Assembly (NCBI GenBank): GCA_049969715.1
Contig: JBMFOH010000036.1
Coordinates: 1 to 14,436, forward strand
Length of the DNA stretch: 14,436 nt
Reading direction: 5' to 3'
From: JBMFOH01 sp049969715 [NCBI: bacterium]
GTDB taxonomy: Bacteria; DUMJ01
Numbering within the stretch: position 1 is the stretch's first letter; each line of letters opens with the position of its first letter. A program made the translations under genes and the position numbers. Positions 4,385-12,242 of the stretch are shown piece after piece. Below the pieces are notes generated by a model, which saw nothing but the letters and a program-made list of their open reading frames with translations, ran no database searches and had not been told where the DNA came from.

Positions 4385-5343
4385 GGTCTTCCTCCTAACA
4401 GGTTCTTTATTTTTTCTATCGTTTCTATAATAATATCCTTGCTGGACTTTGGAAGATCAAAGGCTGCTGCTCCTCTATGCCCTCCTCCTCCTAAAAGACG
4501 AGCTATTGAGCCAACATCTGCATCCTTACTTCTTAAACTAACTCTAAATTTATCCTTATGCTCCTTGACCAAAGCTATAGTATCAACCTCAGAGATTCTC
4601 AATATCATGTCCAAAAGGGAAGAGGTATTGTTCTGAAATATCTTGTCTTCCATAATTTCTAAAGGAATAAACCCCCATGCCAGTCTAGATTCTTTATCTA
4701 TCTTTATCTCCTTCAGTATATCTATATAGATACACATAAGTTCATACGGGATAGAATAAAGTAATCTCATAGCAATATCTCCAGGGAGGATTCCAACATC
4801 AACTATCTTGGAAGCAATATCAAATGTCTCCTTTGTGGTATTGTTATACATAAATCCACCTGTATCTGAGATGAGACCATAGTATAACACGGTAGCTATG
4901 TCTTTATCTAAACTTAGGTCTTTAACTAGATTAAATATAACCTCACTTGTACTAGAGGAGCTTGGTATTACTAGATTTATACTTCCGAAGAATGTATTAT
5001 CTGGATGGTGGTCGATATTCACTATAGTAGACGGTAGGACCTTATATGCATCTCCTATTCTTTCTAGATTACTTGCATCTAGCACGAATGCTATATCTGC
5101 CTCTATTCCTTCCCATTTGTTTTTTATCTCTGTAGCTCCTGGAAGCTTTAAAAATTGATCAGGAATCCTGTCAGATATATATGGATAAACTTCTTTCCCT
5201 AAAAGGACAAGAGCCCTTGAAAGTCCTACTACAGAACCTATTGCATCTCCGTCGGGATATATATGGGAAGTTACAAGGAATCTTCTCTTTTCTTTTATTA
5301 TTTTATTTATCTGAGCTATAGTAGCTAAATCCTCAGCTTTCAT
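4381..5343 (-). CDS. nrnA: DHH/DHHA1 nanoRNase / pAp phosphatase NrnA-like
   Basis: This 320-residue DHH-superfamily phosphoesterase should degrade 2-5-nucleotide RNAs and perhaps dephosphorylate 3'-phosphoadenosine 5'-phosphate, as known for Bacillus NrnA. Metal-binding motifs are all present: SHIYPDGDAIGS (His27, Asp31, Asp33), VLDAS (Asp89), NIDHHPDN (Asp111-His112-His113) and SDTGGFMYNNT (Asp160). The C-terminal DHHA1 nucleotide-binding motif is LLGGGGHRGAAAF (284-295). The ATG at 5341-5343 lies inside the 3' end of rbfA (11-base overlap, ATGAAAGCTGA), and only a weak GAGAAAG lies upstream, so translation probably depends on coupling. The gene sits between rbfA and truB, a usual place for it in Firmicutes-like operons. 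It is not distinguishable from related DHH phosphoesterases by sequence reading alone. Confidence 0.92.
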   Translation of the reverse strand: MKAEDLATIAQINKIIKEKRRFLVTSHIYPDGDAIGSVVGLSRALVLLGKEVYPYISDRIPDQFLKLPGATEIKNKWEGIEADIAFVLDASNLERIGDAYKVLPSTIVNIDHHPDNTFFGSINLVIPSSSSTSEVIFNLVKDLSLDKDIATVLYYGLISDTGGFMYNNTTKETFDIASKIVDVGILPGDIAMRLLYSIPYELMCIYIDILKEIKIDKESRLAWGFIPLEIMEDKIFQNNTSSLLDMILRISEVDTIALVKEHKDKFRVSLRSKDADVGSIARLLGGGGHRGAAAFDLPKSSKDIIIETIEKIKNLLGGRP

Positions 5344-5677
5344 GTGTAACTTTCTCTATATAATTTGCAAGCCATACACCTCTTTCAATAGAGTAATCAA
5401 GCACAAAGGTAATCTCGGGGGTTCTTCTTATATTTAGTCTATGAGCAAGTTCTGTCCTAATGAATCCTGAAGCATTCTTTATAGCCTCAAATGAGTGTTC
5501 TTTTACTTCTTTCTCCCCCATAATACTTATAAAGACTTTGGCATATCTCATATCCTTAGATACATTGACCTCTGTGACAGTGACAAAACCTATCCGTGGG
5601 TCTTTCATTTTGAATATAATATCACTTACCTCTTTCCTTATTAACTCTCCCAATCTTTCTGACCTTAATGGTCTCAT
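5333..5677 (-). CDS. rbfA: Ribosome-binding factor A
   Basis: RbfA is a small single-KH-domain factor that binds the 30S subunit and helps mature the 5' end of 16S rRNA. The 114-residue protein begins MRPLRSERLGELIRKEVSDI, followed by MKDPRIGFVTVTEV and MRYAKVFIS, all family hallmarks. NASGFIR (68-74) is the kinked Ala-x-Gly helix turn typical of the RbfA KH fold, and ELAHRLNIRRTPEITFVLD closes the domain. The ATG at 5675-5677 has a strong GGAGGG about 5 bases upstream. It lies 13 bases downstream of the DUF503 gene, and its last 11 bases overlap nrnA. The position after infB agrees with its role in ribosome biogenesis. Confidence 0.96.
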   Translation of the reverse strand: MRPLRSERLGELIRKEVSDIIFKMKDPRIGFVTVTEVNVSKDMRYAKVFISIMGEKEVKEHSFEAIKNASGFIRTELAHRLNIRRTPEITFVLDYSIERGVWLANYIEKVTHES

Positions 5678-5974: not shown

Positions 5975-7969
5975 CTATTCATAAGTATAACTTTCTATAA
6001 TATCCTTTTCCTTATAATCTCCAAATCCTTCTATAAATATTCCGCATTCATACCCAGAGGCAACCTCTCTTACATCCTCTTTAAATCTCTTTAATGAACT
6101 GAGCTTTCCCTCAAAGATTATATTATCCTCTCTTTTTATTCTTATATTACTGTTTCTTACTATCTTACCTTCTATCACATAACATCCAGCAATACTACCA
6201 AGCTTTGACGACCTGAAGACCTGTCTTATCTCTGCTTTTCCAAGAAGGACCTCTTTTTTCTCAGGCTTAAGTAGTCCCTTTAATGCAAGAGTTATGTCGT
6301 CTATAAGATTATAGATTATATCATACGTTTTTATGCTTATATTTTCGTTCTCTGCCAATTTGGCTACTCCAGACTCTAAACCCACGTTAAAGCCTACAAT
6401 CACTGCCTTTGATGCCTTAGCTAAAAGGACATCCCCCTCTGTAATGTTTCCAACTCCTTTTCTCACTAAAGTAAGATTTACCCCCTCTACATTTATACCC
6501 TTTAGAAACTTTTCTAAAGCATCGAGAGAACCCTGAGTGTCTCCCTTTAATATGAGATTTAGAGAGGTTAATTCACCTGACTCTATCCTCACTCTTATAT
6601 TTTCAAGGGAGACTGCTTCTTCCTTCATTATCTCCTCATTCCACTGAGAGACTAATTCTTTAGCTTTTCTCTCATTCTCTACTACCATAAAGTTCCCTCC
6701 AGCAGTAGGAAGTTTAGGGAATCCTACTATCTGTACAGGCATCGATGGAATAGCTTTTTTAATCCGCTCTCCTTTATCATTGAAGAGAGCCCTTACCTTT
6801 CCATAGGTCCCATCTGCAACTACTATATCTCCAACCTTCAATGTACCTTCTATTACTATAGCTATGGCTACAGGACCTTTACCTTTATCAAGTACTGTTT
6901 CTATAATAGTGCCCCTTGCTGGTACTTCATACCTAGCCTTTAACTCCATAATGTCAGCTATCAATAGTACCATCTCTAGAAGTTGTTCTATCCCTATCTT
7001 CTTCTTGGCTGATATAGGAACCATTATAGTATCTCCTCCCCATTCCTCAGGGATAAGTCCTATCTCTGAAAGCTGGGTTTTTACCCTATCTATATTTGCC
7101 TCAGGTTTATCTATCTTGTTAATAGCCACTATAATAGGTACCTCAGCTGCTTTTGCATGGTCTACAGCCTCTATAGTCTGAGGCATAACCCCGTCATCAG
7201 CTGCAACAACTAGGATAGCTATGTCAGTAACCCTTGCTCCTCTTGCCCTTAAAGCGGTGAAAGCCTCATGTCCTGGCGTATCAATAAAGGTAATCTTACG
7301 TCCATCTATCTCTACCTGATATGCTCCTATATGTTGGGTTATTCCACCAGCCTCTGTATCTATTATATTTGTCTTCCTAATAGCATCCAATAGGGTAGTC
7401 TTTCCATGGTCAACGTGGCCTAATACAGTAACAATTGGTGCCCTTGGTTCACCCTCTGTTGGCTGTATTTTAAGTCTGGTAACAAGCTTAGCCCTTTGTG
7501 GTTGGGTGGTATCTACATATATATTGAACCTTTCGGCAAGTTTAAATATGGTTCCCTGGTCTAACTCTTTGTTTATATTAGCCATTATACCCATCCCCAT
7601 AAGGGACATTATAATCTGACTTACAGGGATATTAAATAGTTCTGAAACCTCCCTTACGGTAGCCTTTAAAGGAATCCTAATCCCTTTAGGGGTCTCTTCT
7701 TTCTTTTCCTGCACTTCTGATGTTTCTGCCACCTCTACTCTTTGGGTCTTCGATTTTATCTCTTCCTTTATTTCTTCTTTCGTTTCTTCTTTCACTTTTT
7801 CTTCTCCAATAGTTGGGGCGATAAGACCTTCTATAGTATCAATTATATCTTCGTCGAGTATACTAAGATGTGACCTTACCCTTACCCCTAGGTCCTTTAA
7901 CTTATCTAACAATTCATGGCTATTAATACCAAGCCTCTTAGCTAATTCGTAAACTCTCACGTTTAACAT
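5975..7969 (-). CDS. infB: Translation initiation factor IF-2
   Basis: IF2 is the GTPase that brings fMet-tRNA to the 30S subunit and promotes subunit joining. The product is 664 residues, a short form typical of Gram-positive and deep-branching bacteria. An N-terminal IF2_N module ([20 protein letters not shown]) is followed by a charged Glu/Lys linker (about 56-92) and a second IF2_N module (about 95-155). G-domain motifs are G1 GHVDHGKT (184-191), G3 DTPGHE (230-235) and G4 NKID (284-287). Domains II, III and the C-terminal tRNA-binding domain follow ([23 protein letters not shown] to the end). Start: ATG at 7967-7969 has GAGGAG directly against it, with no spacer. The GTG at 7958-7960 (giving [11 protein letters not shown]) is 9 bases from the same site and may be the real start. 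The gene overlaps ylxR by 23-32 bases. Confidence 0.97.
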
Positions 7970-8231
7970 CTCCTCTTTTAAGAAGATTCATAAGCTCTGA
8001 TTTTAATTCACACAAAGCTTCTCTATCTATTTTACTCCTCAGAGAGCGTAAGAGGTAATTCTTCTTGTCTATCTCCTTTACACAGTCTATACTGCTACAT
8101 ACATATGCTCCTCTTCCCGACATCCTCTGAAGAGGGTCTATCATTATTTTCCCCTCAGGAGTCCTTACTATACGGATAAATTTTCTTTTATCCTTTTTCT
8201 GTCGACACACTATACAGGTCCGTTCTATCAT
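7938..8231 (-). CDS. ylxR: YlxR/RnpM family RNA-binding protein (DUF448)
   Basis: A small basic protein of the YlxR family. In Bacillus this protein has been described as an RNase P modulator (RnpM). Starting at the ATG at 8229-8231 it has 97 residues and opens MIERTCIVCRQKKDKRKFIR, the family signature, followed by the conserved RMSGRGAYVC. Four cysteines (CIVC and CSSIDC) are arranged as in relatives. The C-terminal tail is Lys/Arg-rich. This start is preferred because family homology begins there and GAGG lies 6 bases upstream; in-frame ATGs at 8241-8243 and 8286-8288 would lengthen the N-terminus and the overlap with nusA. Even so it overlaps nusA by 44 bases, and it runs into infB at its other end. 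The L7Ae-like ylxQ gene that often follows ylxR is absent. Confidence 0.92.
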   Translation of the reverse strand: MIERTCIVCRQKKDKRKFIRIVRTPEGKIMIDPLQRMSGRGAYVCSSIDCVKEIDKKNYLLRSLRSKIDREALCELKSELMNLLKRGDVKRESLRIS

Positions 8232-9264
8232 CCTCAACCTCATCCTCTGTGCGTATATCAATCTTCCAACCAGTAAGTTTTGCAGCAAGTCTCACATTCT
8301 GTCCTTCTTTACCAATGGCAAGAGAAAGATGTTCTTTTGGAACTATTACCCTTACACTCCTCTCTCCTGTCTGCTCGATCCTTATAACTCGAGCAGGATT
8401 CAATGCATTGCCTATAAATATCAAAGGGTCTTCACTCCAAGCAATAACATCGATCTTTTCCCTCTTAAGCTCCTTTACTATAGGCTGTATCCTTACCCCT
8501 TTCGAACCTATACAGGTCCCTACAGGGTCTATATTACCATCCTTCGAAGCTACTGCTATCTTGGTTCTTATTCCTGCTTCTCTGGCAATCCCTTTTATAA
8601 TTACTACTCCGCTCTGAATCTCTGGTATCTCCATCTCAAAAATCTTCTTAACCAATCCTGGATGACTCCTAGAGCAGGTCACCTCTGGGCCATGTGATGT
8701 CTTTATAACCTTTAGGATATATACAATCAATTTATCCCCTACCTTATACTCTTCAGAAGGAACCTGCTCATATGGAGGGAGTAAGCCTTCCACCTTACCG
8801 AGATCTAGATAGACTCCTTTCTTATCTATCCTGTATATAGTCCCTCTCACTACTTCATTTAGCTTCCTAGAAAATTCATCGTAAAGTATCTCTCTCTCTG
8901 CCTCTTCTAACTTTTGAATTATAACCTGTTTTGCTGTCTGAAAGGCAAATCTACCAAATTCAGCAGCAGGGACGATCTCCACGTTAATAGTATCCCCTAT
9001 CTTTGCCTCAGGATTAAGCCTCAATGCCTCGTTAAGACTTATTTCTACAGAACTATTCTCTACCTTTTCTACAACCCTTTTATTGGCATATATATGTATC
9101 TCTCCATTATCTCTATCAATAGAGATAGAAACATTCTGAGTAGTACCAAACTGTTTCCTATAGGCAGAGAGGAGAGCACTCTCCAAGAATGTAAAAAGAG
9201 ACTCTATTGGGATACCTTTTTCTTTTTCTATCTGCTTTAACATCAGTAACAGGCTACTAGTCAT
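8188..9264 (-). CDS. nusA: Transcription termination/antitermination factor NusA
   Basis: NusA binds RNA polymerase and nascent RNA and modulates pausing, termination and antitermination. The 358-residue protein has the short architecture usual outside Proteobacteria, with no C-terminal acidic repeats. The N-terminal polymerase-binding domain is about 1-130 (MLKQIEKEKGI, LESALLSAYRKQF). The S1 domain is about 136-200 (RGTIYRIDKKGVYLDLGKVE). KH1 has GSKGVRIQP (253-261) and KH2 has GKEGQNVRLAAKLTGWKIDI (318-337). The family motif DPVGTCIGSKGVRIQPIVKE is intact. The ATG at 9262-9264 overlaps the rimP TGA as ATGA, and no good Shine-Dalgarno is seen, so coupling with rimP is likely. Its stop lies inside ylxR. 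The rimP-nusA pair is conserved across most bacteria. Confidence 0.97.
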   Translation of the reverse strand: MTSSLLLMLKQIEKEKGIPIESLFTFLESALLSAYRKQFGTTQNVSISIDRDNGEIHIYANKRVVEKVENSSVEISLNEALRLNPEAKIGDTINVEIVPAAEFGRFAFQTAKQVIIQKLEEAEREILYDEFSRKLNEVVRGTIYRIDKKGVYLDLGKVEGLLPPYEQVPSEEYKVGDKLIVYILKVIKTSHGPEVTCSRSHPGLVKKIFEMEIPEIQSGVVIIKGIAREAGIRTKIAVASKDGNIDPVGTCIGSKGVRIQPIVKELKREKIDVIAWSEDPLIFIGNALNPARVIRIEQTGERSVRVIVPKEHLSLAIGKEGQNVRLAAKLTGWKIDIRTEDEVEDDRTDLYSVSTEKG

Positions 9265-9755
9265 AGGTCTATTTCAAGCCTCGCTTTTAAAATATTCTCG
9301 AATGGTATAACCAAAATAGTTCCTTCTCTATCTATTAATACCTTTGTATTATCTACCTCTTTTATAATGCCCTTTATATTCCTCGCTCCTTCGATAGGGT
9401 CTTTTAACTTTAACTGAACCTTATGTCCTATAAATCTTACAAAATCCTTTATCTTCTTTAATGGTCTATCCAATCCAGGGGAAAATACCTCTAGATTATA
9501 GGAGTAAGGTATAGGGTCAATCTCGTCAAGTAGAAGACTTACCACTTGACTTATATTCTCACAATCTCTAAGGGTGATATTTCCATCAATCCTATCCACA
9601 AAGAAACGGAGGACCCATCCTCCCCTCTCCTTTGTATATTCTATATCTACAAGTTCATATCCCATATCTTCTATAACCTTACCTACTTCTTTTTCCACAA
9701 TAGCAAGCATATTTCCCCTTGTTTCCATTAGTACAAAAAGTGGGACAACGCCCAC
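9261..9755 (-). CDS. rimP: Ribosome maturation factor RimP
   Basis: RimP is needed for 30S subunit maturation. The core reads GYELVDIEYTKERGGWVLRF, then DCENISQVVSLLLD and YNLEVFSPGLDRPLKK, the strongest family motif (EVSSPGxxRPL). An SH3-like C-terminal domain follows (GHKVQLKLKDPIEG to ENILKARLEIDL). Two starts compete. GTG at 9753-9755 (used here, 164 residues) has a strong AAAGGAG 7 bases upstream, but it lies inside the 5' arm of a perfect hairpin. ATG at 9708-9710 (149 residues) has a poorer AAGGGG 4 bases upstream, but it gives the N-terminus MLAIVEKEVGKVIEDMGYEL, which matches the usual family length. The extra 15 residues do not resemble any RimP I know. It is the first gene of the nine-gene operon. 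Confidence 0.94.
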   Translation of the reverse strand: MGVVPLFVLMETRGNMLAIVEKEVGKVIEDMGYELVDIEYTKERGGWVLRFFVDRIDGNITLRDCENISQVVSLLLDEIDPIPYSYNLEVFSPGLDRPLKKIKDFVRFIGHKVQLKLKDPIEGARNIKGIIKEVDNTKVLIDREGTILVIPFENILKARLEIDL

Positions 9756-9759
9756 TTTT
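9735..9759 (-). terminator. Perfect hairpin with T run across the rimP start: terminator or attenuator
   Basis: Read on the minus strand, AAAAGTGGG (9759-9751), a six-base loop CGTTGT and CCCACTTTT (9744-9736) form a perfect 9-bp stem, followed by one more T, so five Ts close the structure. The shape resembles a small intrinsic terminator. It lies downstream of the putative rimP promoter and contains the GTG candidate start. It could terminate read-through from the dpp operon, attenuate the rimP-nusA-infB operon, or block the GTG. Only the inverted repeat is directly seen. Confidence 0.55.
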
Positions 9760-9794
9760 CATCTCCTTTCTAATATTCTACTTTTTCTATTTCA

Positions 9795-9823
9795 ATTTTA
9801 ACATAAACTTTGGAGGAATGCAA
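9795..9823 (-). promoter_or_regulatory. Putative promoter of the rimP-nusA-infB operon
   Basis: On the minus strand TTGCAT (9823-9818) and TAAAAT (9800-9795, five of six to TATAAT) are separated by exactly 17 bases. The -35 match is modest (three of six). The element begins directly after the methyltransferase stop, and transcription would start some 25-30 bases before the AAAGGAG ribosome-binding site of the GTG rimP start. Confidence 0.4.
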
Positions 9824-10348
9824 TCAGAACTTTTTGAATGAGATAAAATAATGATTTTCGAATTCGATATAGCTTGACTCTAAAAAATGATAGGCTTCTA
9901 CCTTAGTTTTTAACCTTTCTCTTGTAAACCTTATACCTTTAGGCGGACCAAACACTGCCCTAAGATTAAATTCTACCATATCGAGATATGCACCTTCTCT
10001 AAGACTTTCTGACAAAACCTTAAGAACCTCATCCTGACATTCTATATCATGGAAAGAGTTTGAAAAGAATATATGAGTAGCCTCAGAAAAATCATTTATT
10101 TTTATCCAATCGCATATATCTGCCTGGATCTTTATAATCCTTTCATCCAAATAGTATTCGTTTTGAAAGTTTCTTCCATCCTTATCTATAGCAATCACTT
10201 TTTTGCATCTTTTGGCAAATTCAGATGAGTAGAGCCCATCACCAGAGCCAATATCAAAGACAACATCCTCATTAGAAAGTTTCAGGGCTTCTACTACGGT
10301 ATTAACTATTGTCTTCCTCAATTTATCGTTAAAGTGTAAATGATGCAT
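9824..10348 (-). CDS. Class I SAM-dependent methyltransferase, substrate unknown
   Basis: A 174-residue Rossmann-fold methyltransferase. Motif I is VVFDIGSGDGLYSSEF (29-44) for S-adenosylmethionine binding. The acidic end of strand 2 is VIAIDKD (51-57), with Asp55 the likely ribose contact. ADICDW (76-81) corresponds to motif II/III, and HIFFSNSFHDIE (92-103) to motif IV, in the manner of UbiE-like enzymes. The C-terminal part is short (FGPPKGIRFTRERLKTKVEA), so it resembles a minimal enzyme. No signal peptide or membrane segment is present. The ATG at 10346-10348 has AGAGGAGG 10 bases upstream, overlapping the end of dppC 17 bases away, so it is probably the last gene of the dpp transcript. 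Nothing in the sequence fixes the substrate; the context (peptide importer, then ribosome maturation genes) allows either a small molecule or a macromolecular target. Confidence 0.87.
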   Translation of the reverse strand: MHHLHFNDKLRKTIVNTVVEALKLSNEDVVFDIGSGDGLYSSEFAKRCKKVIAIDKDGRNFQNEYYLDERIIKIQADICDWIKINDFSEATHIFFSNSFHDIECQDEVLKVLSESLREGAYLDMVEFNLRAVFGPPKGIRFTRERLKTKVEAYHFLESSYIEFENHYFISFKKF

Positions 10349-12220: not shown

Positions 12221-12242
12221 GGGAGGAGGATGTCCTCCTCCC
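12221..12242 (-). terminator. Perfect intercistronic hairpin between dppA and dppB
   Basis: On the transcript strand GGGAGGAGGA (12242-12233), a two-base spacer (in practice a four-base ACAT loop) and TCCTCCTCCC (12230-12221) form a GC-rich perfect inverted repeat, followed by TTTAACTTT. It may partly terminate transcription after dppA or protect the dppA mRNA 3' end, giving more binding protein than permease. The CCTCCTC of the 3' arm can also pair with the dppB ribosome-binding site GAGGAGG (12211-12205). Confidence 0.65.

What the first reader, a model, noticed from the sequence alone, without database searches (positions are those of the whole stretch)
9705..9770. Hairpin covering the rimP start: attenuator or start-site switch for the NusA operon
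A perfect 9-bp stem with five closing Ts lies just after the putative promoter. Its 5' arm contains the GTG that has the best ribosome-binding site, whereas the ATG at 9708-9710, 3' of the hairpin, gives the usual RimP N-terminus. Because the operon encodes NusA, which acts on RNA hairpins, feedback attenuation is an attractive idea. Alternatively it simply terminates the upstream dpp transcript.
Basis: partly seen in the sequence, partly recalled or inferred. Interest (0 to 1): 0.6.

Follow-up and report, generated by a model that had tools for sequence, protein, structure and literature searches.

The report
rimP-leader terminator inside ribosome-binding site
The hairpin is a real and widely conserved stop signal that bacteria place in front of the rimP-nusA genes, probably to adjust how much of them is made; in this little-known lineage it sits, unusually, between the ribosome's landing site and the start codon.

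Summary
The hairpin is real and conserved. On the minus strand a 9-bp stem (GUGGG/CCCAC core, A/U flanks, five U's) lies between a promoter-like sequence and rimP-nusA-ylxR-infB-rbfA. It fits the published "rimP-leader" terminator family (Naville & Gautheret 2010), proposed there to be NusA-controlled; a review states that B. subtilis NusA autoregulates through a terminator in its 5' leader. So attenuation is well founded, though not shown here. In my survey 87 of 144 rimP genes had a T-tailed hairpin upstream (1.2% of shuffles), with covarying outer stem pairs. The start-site switch is not supported: the GTG is part of the family's stem motif, and its frame leads into rimP only in the window. 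What is unusual: in the three clade members found (window, L001, L002) a 9-letter Shine-Dalgarno match lies directly upstream of the hairpin, with none between hairpin and conserved ATG. None of the other 84 leaders has an upstream match above 7 letters. The folded stem would shrink the 33-34 nt gap to about 3-10 nt, as in phage T4 genes 25 and 38. A new variant of a known attenuator; the mechanism is inferred.

The parts
9795..9823 (-). putative promoter: -35 TTGCAT (9823-9818), 17-nt spacer with TG, -10 TAAAAT (9800-9795)
   Evidence: read by eye; the string TTATGTTAAAAT is present in window, L001 and L002 at a similar distance from the hairpin. The consensus scan did not list it
9763..9771 (-). 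Shine-Dalgarno match AGAAAGGAG immediately upstream of the hairpin
   Evidence: 9-letter match in window, L001 and L002; next longest upstream match among the other 84 leaders is 7 letters. The SD reference string is recalled; the anti-SD of this lineage could not be checked
9736..9759 (-). terminator-like hairpin AAAAGUGGG-CGUUGU-CCCACUUUU (rimP-leader)
   Evidence: family described in PMC2965389
9735..9739 (-). run of five U's closing the stem
   Evidence: UUUUU kept in L001 and L002
9753..9755 (-).
9726..9728 (-). conserved rimP start codon ATG, 6 nt after the U-run
   Evidence: gives a 155-residue RimP in all three clade members; RimP_N domain at residues 15-87
   Evidence: 4-letter SD match AAGG before it
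9261..9728 (-). rimP
   Evidence: Pfam RimP_N 7.1e-25, DUF150_C 1.4e-17
8188..9264 (-). nusA
   Evidence: Pfam NusA_N, S1, KH_5
7938..8288 (-). ylxR
   Evidence: Pfam YlxR 1.8e-24
5975..7969 (-). infB (IF2)
   Evidence: Pfam IF-2, IF2_N, GTP_EFTU
5333..5677 (-). rbfA
   Evidence: Pfam RBFA

Best explanation
The hairpin is this lineage's copy of the rimP-leader: a short intrinsic terminator at which a fraction of RNA polymerases stops before the rimP-nusA-ylxR-infB-rbfA operon, most likely more often when NusA is plentiful, so that NusA limits its own synthesis. In this clade the Shine-Dalgarno sequence lies upstream of the terminator. On read-through transcripts the same hairpin stays folded and acts as a structured spacer: the 30S subunit binds AGAAAGGAG, the stem loops out about 24 nt, and the AUG at 9728 comes into range, as in phage T4 genes 25 and 38. 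Shown: hairpin, family-wide occurrence and covariation, order SD-hairpin-AUG in three of three clade members, predicted fold with the SD free. Inferred: termination, NusA dependence, use of the SD across the hairpin.
For: Family: T-tailed hairpin (dG <= -8) upstream of 87 of 144 rimP genes (1.2% of shuffles); GTGG in the 5' arm in 66 (shuffles 0). In 74 of the 144 genes picked only by the letters GTGG...CC[A/G]C, outer pair 2 is A-T in 35 and G-C in 24, a standard pair in 66 of 74, shuffled mean 52.3, maximum 60 of 2000. The hairpin with its 6-nt loop occurs once without mismatch in each of G001 and G002. Published as the most ubiquitous attenuator with NusA as best candidate regulator; B. subtilis NusA autoregulates by termination in its leader. 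Variant: SD-to-U-run block 34/36 and 33/36 identical to L001 and L002, against third codon positions 45% and 41%; the reading frame through the hairpin is not kept, so selection acts on the RNA. Predicted stem probability 0.98-1.0 and SD unpaired 0.84-0.98 at 37 C. T4 precedent: spacing 22 to 5 nt and 27 to 11 nt.
Against: No RNA, ribosome or protein data. Only three clade members, and the stem does not vary among them, so covariation comes from other lineages. Rfam finds nothing at gathering score in the window, no rimP family at E <= 10 in the window leader, L001 or L002, and RF01770 nothing at the rimP locus of G001 or G002. The 3' arm has UCCC where the published motif has gCCC. 57 of 144 rimP genes had no such hairpin by my rule. 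Outer pairs 4-6 do not exceed the shuffle maxima. No 16S gene was found in G001 or G002, so the anti-SD is assumed. The window AUG is predicted only 0.53 unpaired, and the window stem probability falls to 0.80, 0.63 and 0.50 at 55, 65 and 75 C; the growth temperature is unknown. The window has a second in-frame ATG (9710) with a 4-letter AAGG. SD-to-GTG spacing (7 nt) is also good, so initiation inside the hairpin is not excluded. In L001 an ATG directly abutting the SD is in frame with rimP, though it is CTG in L002 and out of frame in the window.
Confidence: 0.6

Rival explanations
1. rimP-leader terminator as in other bacteria, but the upstream SD serves translation of a short GTG-started leader ORF inside the hairpin; the ribosome crossing it opens the stem (antitermination) and re-initiates at the adjoining rimP AUG.
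For: GTG lies 7 nt after AGGAG, good spacing, in all three members; in L001 the ORF ends in TGA overlapping the rimP ATG, a layout typical of translational coupling (read).
Against: GTG is fixed by the family stem motif in lineages without a strong upstream SD, so its conservation says nothing. The ORF ends differently in each member: overlapping stop (L001), out of frame past the ATG (L002), fused to rimP (window).
Confidence: 0.2
2. The hairpin is only an RBS-spanning structure that sets rimP translation, with no termination in this lineage.
For: Hairpin and SD-AUG geometry are conserved; four of the five U's are taken up by the 9-bp stem, and the - strand scan did not list a terminator.
Against: Stem and U-run are those of the rimP-leader family, where termination is the proposed (B. 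subtilis: reported) function.
Confidence: 0.12
3. Start-site switch: RimP is made from GTG 9755 (extended N-terminus) or ATG 9710 according to folding.
For: In the window GTG is in frame with rimP and has the best-placed SD.
Against: GTG is out of frame with rimP in L001 and L002; ATG 9710 is ATA there; ATG 9728 gives 155 residues in all three.
Confidence: 0.03
4. Terminator of the upstream methyltransferase-like/dpp transcript.
For: The upstream genes are on the same strand, and one search lists no other terminator-like site in the 95 nt between the upstream gene and the rimP ATG. L001 and L002 also have a same-strand ORF upstream (344 and 48 codons).
Against: The upstream genes are different in the three genomes; in L001 the upstream gene is followed by a stronger T-tailed hairpin of its own (dG -23.5); the promoter-like string lies between those genes and the hairpin in all three.
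Confidence: 0.05

Closest known systems
rimP-leader (Naville & Gautheret 2010, PMC2965389)
   Same: position before rimP-nusA-infB, GGGC-containing 5' arm, CCC 3' arm, U-run, short distance to the gene
   Different: SD upstream of the hairpin; 3' arm UCCC, not gCCC
B. subtilis nusA leader attenuator (autoregulation, one passage of review PMC12288461)
   Same: same operon; terminator in the 5' leader
   Different: leader of 180 nt reported for B. subtilis rimP (PMC2965389) against about 60 nt inferred here; NusA effect untested here
T4 genes 25 and 38 structured ribosome-binding sites (review PMC3014915)
   Same: hairpin between SD and AUG shortens an otherwise too long spacing
   Different: phage genes, no terminator role mentioned in the passages seen; here the hairpin is also a terminator-family element and its function is untested
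Rfam RF01770 rimP
   Same: named for the same gene
   Different: 102-position model; no match at the element in window, L001, L002 or at the rimP locus of G001 and G002

Membership tests
rimP-leader (PMC2965389) | lies in front of rimP-nusA-infB | tested here: met
rimP-leader (PMC2965389) | GGGc on the 5' arm, gCCC on the 3' arm | tested here: inconclusive
   GGGC met; the 3' arm is UCCC in window, L001 and L002; that letter is lower case in the publication
rimP-leader (PMC2965389) | U-run after the stem | tested here: met
   UUUUU in all three, though four of the U's can pair with the A's of the 5' arm
rimP-leader (PMC2965389) | 4-130 nt from terminator to gene start | tested here: met
   5-6 nt from the U-run to ATG
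rimP-leader (PMC2965389) | terminates transcription, NusA-responsive | not testable with these tools
   needs in vitro transcription or RNA 3'-end mapping
Rfam RF01770 | covariance-model score over 47 bits | tested here: not met
   no match at the element; the model passes its cut-off in 1 of 14 control genomes
T4-type hairpin-spanned ribosome-binding site | SD and AUG too far apart in the linear RNA | tested here: met
   GGAG to AUG 34, 33, 33 nt in window, L001, L002
T4-type hairpin-spanned ribosome-binding site | stable hairpin between them with SD and AUG free | tested here: inconclusive
   prediction only, 37 C: stem 0.98-1.0; SD 0.84-0.98 unpaired; AUG 0.95 and 0.91 unpaired in L001 and L002 but 0.53 in the window
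T4-type hairpin-spanned ribosome-binding site | translation falls when the stem is broken | not testable with these tools
   needs reporter or toeprint

The most novel reading that the evidence does not exclude
One hairpin does two opposed jobs and links them. As the leader is made, a 30S subunit can settle on the SD before the terminator's second arm emerges and hinder its folding (antitermination); if it does not, NusA helps the hairpin stop the polymerase; on full-length mRNA the refolded hairpin brings SD and AUG together. The operon for RimP, NusA, IF2 and RbfA would then respond to the supply of initiating 30S subunits as well as to NusA.
Probability: 0.15. Interest if true: 0.65.

Novelty: new variant of a known kind. 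Interest (0 to 1): 0.42.

Why it matters
The rimP-leader is reported as the most ubiquitous transcription attenuator (PMC2965389). A lineage in which its terminator is also the spacer of the ribosome-binding site offers a natural test of how termination and translation start are coupled at the operon for NusA, IF2 and two 30S maturation factors. If the variant holds, it is a cellular counterpart of the structured ribosome-binding sites described for two phage T4 genes.

Tried and rejected
Rfam at gathering and lax thresholds: no rimP family at the element; RF01770 over nine genomes: matches at E <= 10 in 7, none over the cut-off, none at the rimP locus of G001 or G002. The exact block in IMG/VR: 0; NusA relatives in IMG/VR: 25 pattern matches, none a relative. 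16S in G001 and G002 to read the anti-SD: none found. SD-then-hairpin pattern in 394 genomes around a Peptostreptococcaceae: 1 match, with no rimP-like frame after it. Looser rule on the 87 leaders: 12 have an upstream SD match of 5 or more letters, 3 of them the clade; the rule flagged G024, G195, G090, G054 and G020 besides the clade, but their first in-frame starts lie 22-90 nt after the stem and two (G024, G020) have a 4-letter SD of their own; G135 also has a 5-letter match and an ATG 10 nt after the stem, but that start lies 59 codons before the RimP core instead of 14. Antiterminator: a 9/10 match of the 3' arm with the 5' leader in the window is not evident by eye in L001 and L002. A first look at the loci is not counted in the survey. 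Script errors: one search read the window rimP one base off (repeated); one search had loci in the wrong orientation (corrected; all 144 frames then open). Rows dropped: of the 144 genomes with RimP_N, G017 (match in an 83-residue frame), and the secondary hits in G025 and G060; the window was added, giving 144.

Full report
Observation. The minus strand carries AAAAGUGGG-CGUUGU-CCCACUUUUU (stem arms 9759-9751 and 9744-9736), a perfect 9-bp stem with five U's. Downstream come rimP (RimP_N at residues 15-87 counted from ATG 9728), nusA, ylxR, infB, rbfA, a DHH gene and truB. The hairpin has the most pairs of 18 terminator-like sites in the window, where shuffles give 9.1 +/- 2.9 sites, but it is listed for the + strand. 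The fold energy of the whole leader is unremarkable (z -0.58), so conservation has to carry the argument.

Relatives. NusA found 49 loci in the genome collection; two, L001 and L002, are close (75-76% identity), both unnamed bacterial MAGs; the next full-length match is 50%. The window itself has no held genome. Both relatives carry the same layout: TTATGTTAAAAT, AGAAAGGAG, hairpin, U-run, 5 nt, ATG of rimP. From the SD to the U-run 34 of 36 (L001) and 33 of 36 (L002) bases match the window; the two differences shared by both relatives lie in the loop, the third of L002 between SD and stem. RimP is 66.5% and 68.4% identical in protein and 45% and 41% at third codon positions. The hairpin occurs once without mismatch in each of G001 and G002, the whole genomes of L001 and L002.

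Start codon. ATG 9728 gives exactly 155 residues in all three. From GTG 9755 the window reads into rimP, L001 reaches TGA overlapping the rimP ATG, and L002 passes out of frame (read). An ATG abutting the SD is in frame with rimP in L001, is CTG in L002 and out of frame in the window. The window has one more base between U-run and ATG than the relatives, which changes the frame while the RNA element stays: selection is on the RNA, not on a peptide.

Family. The element fits the rimP-leader of Naville and Gautheret (PMC2965389, section 7 read): GGGc(...)gCCC terminator with U-stretch, 4-130 nt before rimP, NusA named as best candidate regulator. The 5' arm fits; the 3' arm has U in place of the lower-case g. 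As a separate test I took the RimP_N matches (144 of 192 genomes), dropped one fragment and two secondary hits, added the window, and read up to 240 nt (at least 201) upstream of the RimP core in 144 genes. A T-tailed hairpin with dG <= -8 was found in 87 of 144 (1.2% of 2880 shuffled regions), with GTGG in the 5' arm in 66 (shuffles 0); without the three clade members the counts are 84 and 63 of 141. 57 had none by this rule. Choosing only by GTGG...CC[A/G]C gave 74 of 144; the first three outer pairs are standard in 71, 66 and 67 of 74, above every one of 2000 shuffles (maxima 66, 60, 66), and pair 2 is A-T in 35 and G-C in 24. Pairs 4, 5 and 6 do not exceed the shuffle maxima. Shuffles do not remove relatedness among genomes. 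Rfam's own rimP model (RF01770) does not match the element.

The variant. In 66 of 87 leaders at least one in-frame start after the stem has an SD match of four or more letters between stem and start (the window is counted there because of AAGG before ATG 9710). In the clade the SD is instead a 9-letter match directly upstream of the stem, with none before the conserved ATG, which lies 10-11 nt after the GC part of the stem. None of the other 84 leaders has an upstream match above 7 letters. A direct pattern for the canonical hairpin followed closely by ATG matched 26 of 386 genomes (30 places; the reversed control gave 12, my count). By my reading, 17 of the 30 places precede a rimP-like frame (an 18th, L126, by the position of its RimP_N match), and only G001 and G002 have AGGAG in the 45 nt upstream. 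A pattern for SD followed by hairpin matched 1 of 394 genomes around a Peptostreptococcaceae, not at rimP. Some other lineages have the hairpin abutting the ATG with no SD match at all (G004, G014, G167).

Mechanism. GGAG to AUG is 33-34 nt in the linear RNA. With the 9-bp stem folded it is 9-10 nt, with the extra A-U and G-U pairs predicted about 3-5 nt (counted by hand). The stem is predicted formed (0.98-1.0) and the SD open (0.84-0.98) at 37 C; the AUG is open in L001 and L002 (0.95, 0.91) but only 0.53 in the window; at 55-75 C the window stem weakens to 0.80-0.50. This is the geometry of T4 genes 38 and 25 (22 to 5 and 27 to 11 nt; passages of PMC3014915). For termination, a review states that B. 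subtilis NusA autoregulates by NusA-stimulated termination in its 5' leader (one passage of PMC12288461); the primary paper is not held. In PMC8060035 (passages) NusA-dependent terminators are described as having distal U-tract interruptions; UUUUUGUACUAAU here and UUUUUAUAAUAU in the relatives fit that, which is suggestive only.

Not mainly the dpp terminator. Upstream genes differ: methyltransferase-like and dpp genes in the window; in L001 a 344-codon same-strand gene followed by a stronger hairpin of its own; in L002 a 48-codon same-strand ORF, then a divergent 558-codon frame. Promoter-like string and hairpin stay with rimP.

Literature. Searches for SD-hairpin-AUG sites (3 papers, 13 papers) and for the rimP leader or nusA attenuation showed, in the listings seen, no description of a rimP-leader with its SD upstream. 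PMC3936740 (passages) deals with hairpins upstream of the SD. Full texts beyond the passages named were not read, and subscription journals are mostly missing.

Verdict. The SD-hairpin-AUG order is a variant seen so far only in this clade, with a testable dual role.

Noticed in passing
window 7969 (infB start, minus strand): A GAGGAG SD match abuts the infB ATG with no spacing, so SD spacing in this organism may be looser than assumed.
   Followed up: no
L077, L076, L210 (genomes G004, G014, G167): In these rimP leaders the terminator-like hairpin abuts the ATG with no SD match on either side; in L077 a promoter-like sequence lies directly upstream, so the leader would be little more than the hairpin.
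   Followed up: partly
window 12221-12241: A GC-rich palindrome (GGGAGGAGG...CCTCCT) lies between the dppB-like gene and the solute-binding protein gene, perhaps an intra-operon processing or attenuation site.
   Followed up: no
window 9824-10348: The ORF just upstream of the rimP promoter matches Pfam RrnaAD over only part of the profile: a short methyltransferase-like protein of unclear role.
   Followed up: no
window 7938-8288 and 8188-9264: The ylxR frame, read from its TTG, overlaps the 3' end of nusA by about 100 nt; the true ylxR start is probably further downstream.
   Followed up: no
L002 4297-4443: A 48-codon ORF with an AGGAGGTGA match before its ATG lies on the same strand just upstream of the rimP promoter-like string.
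   Followed up: no
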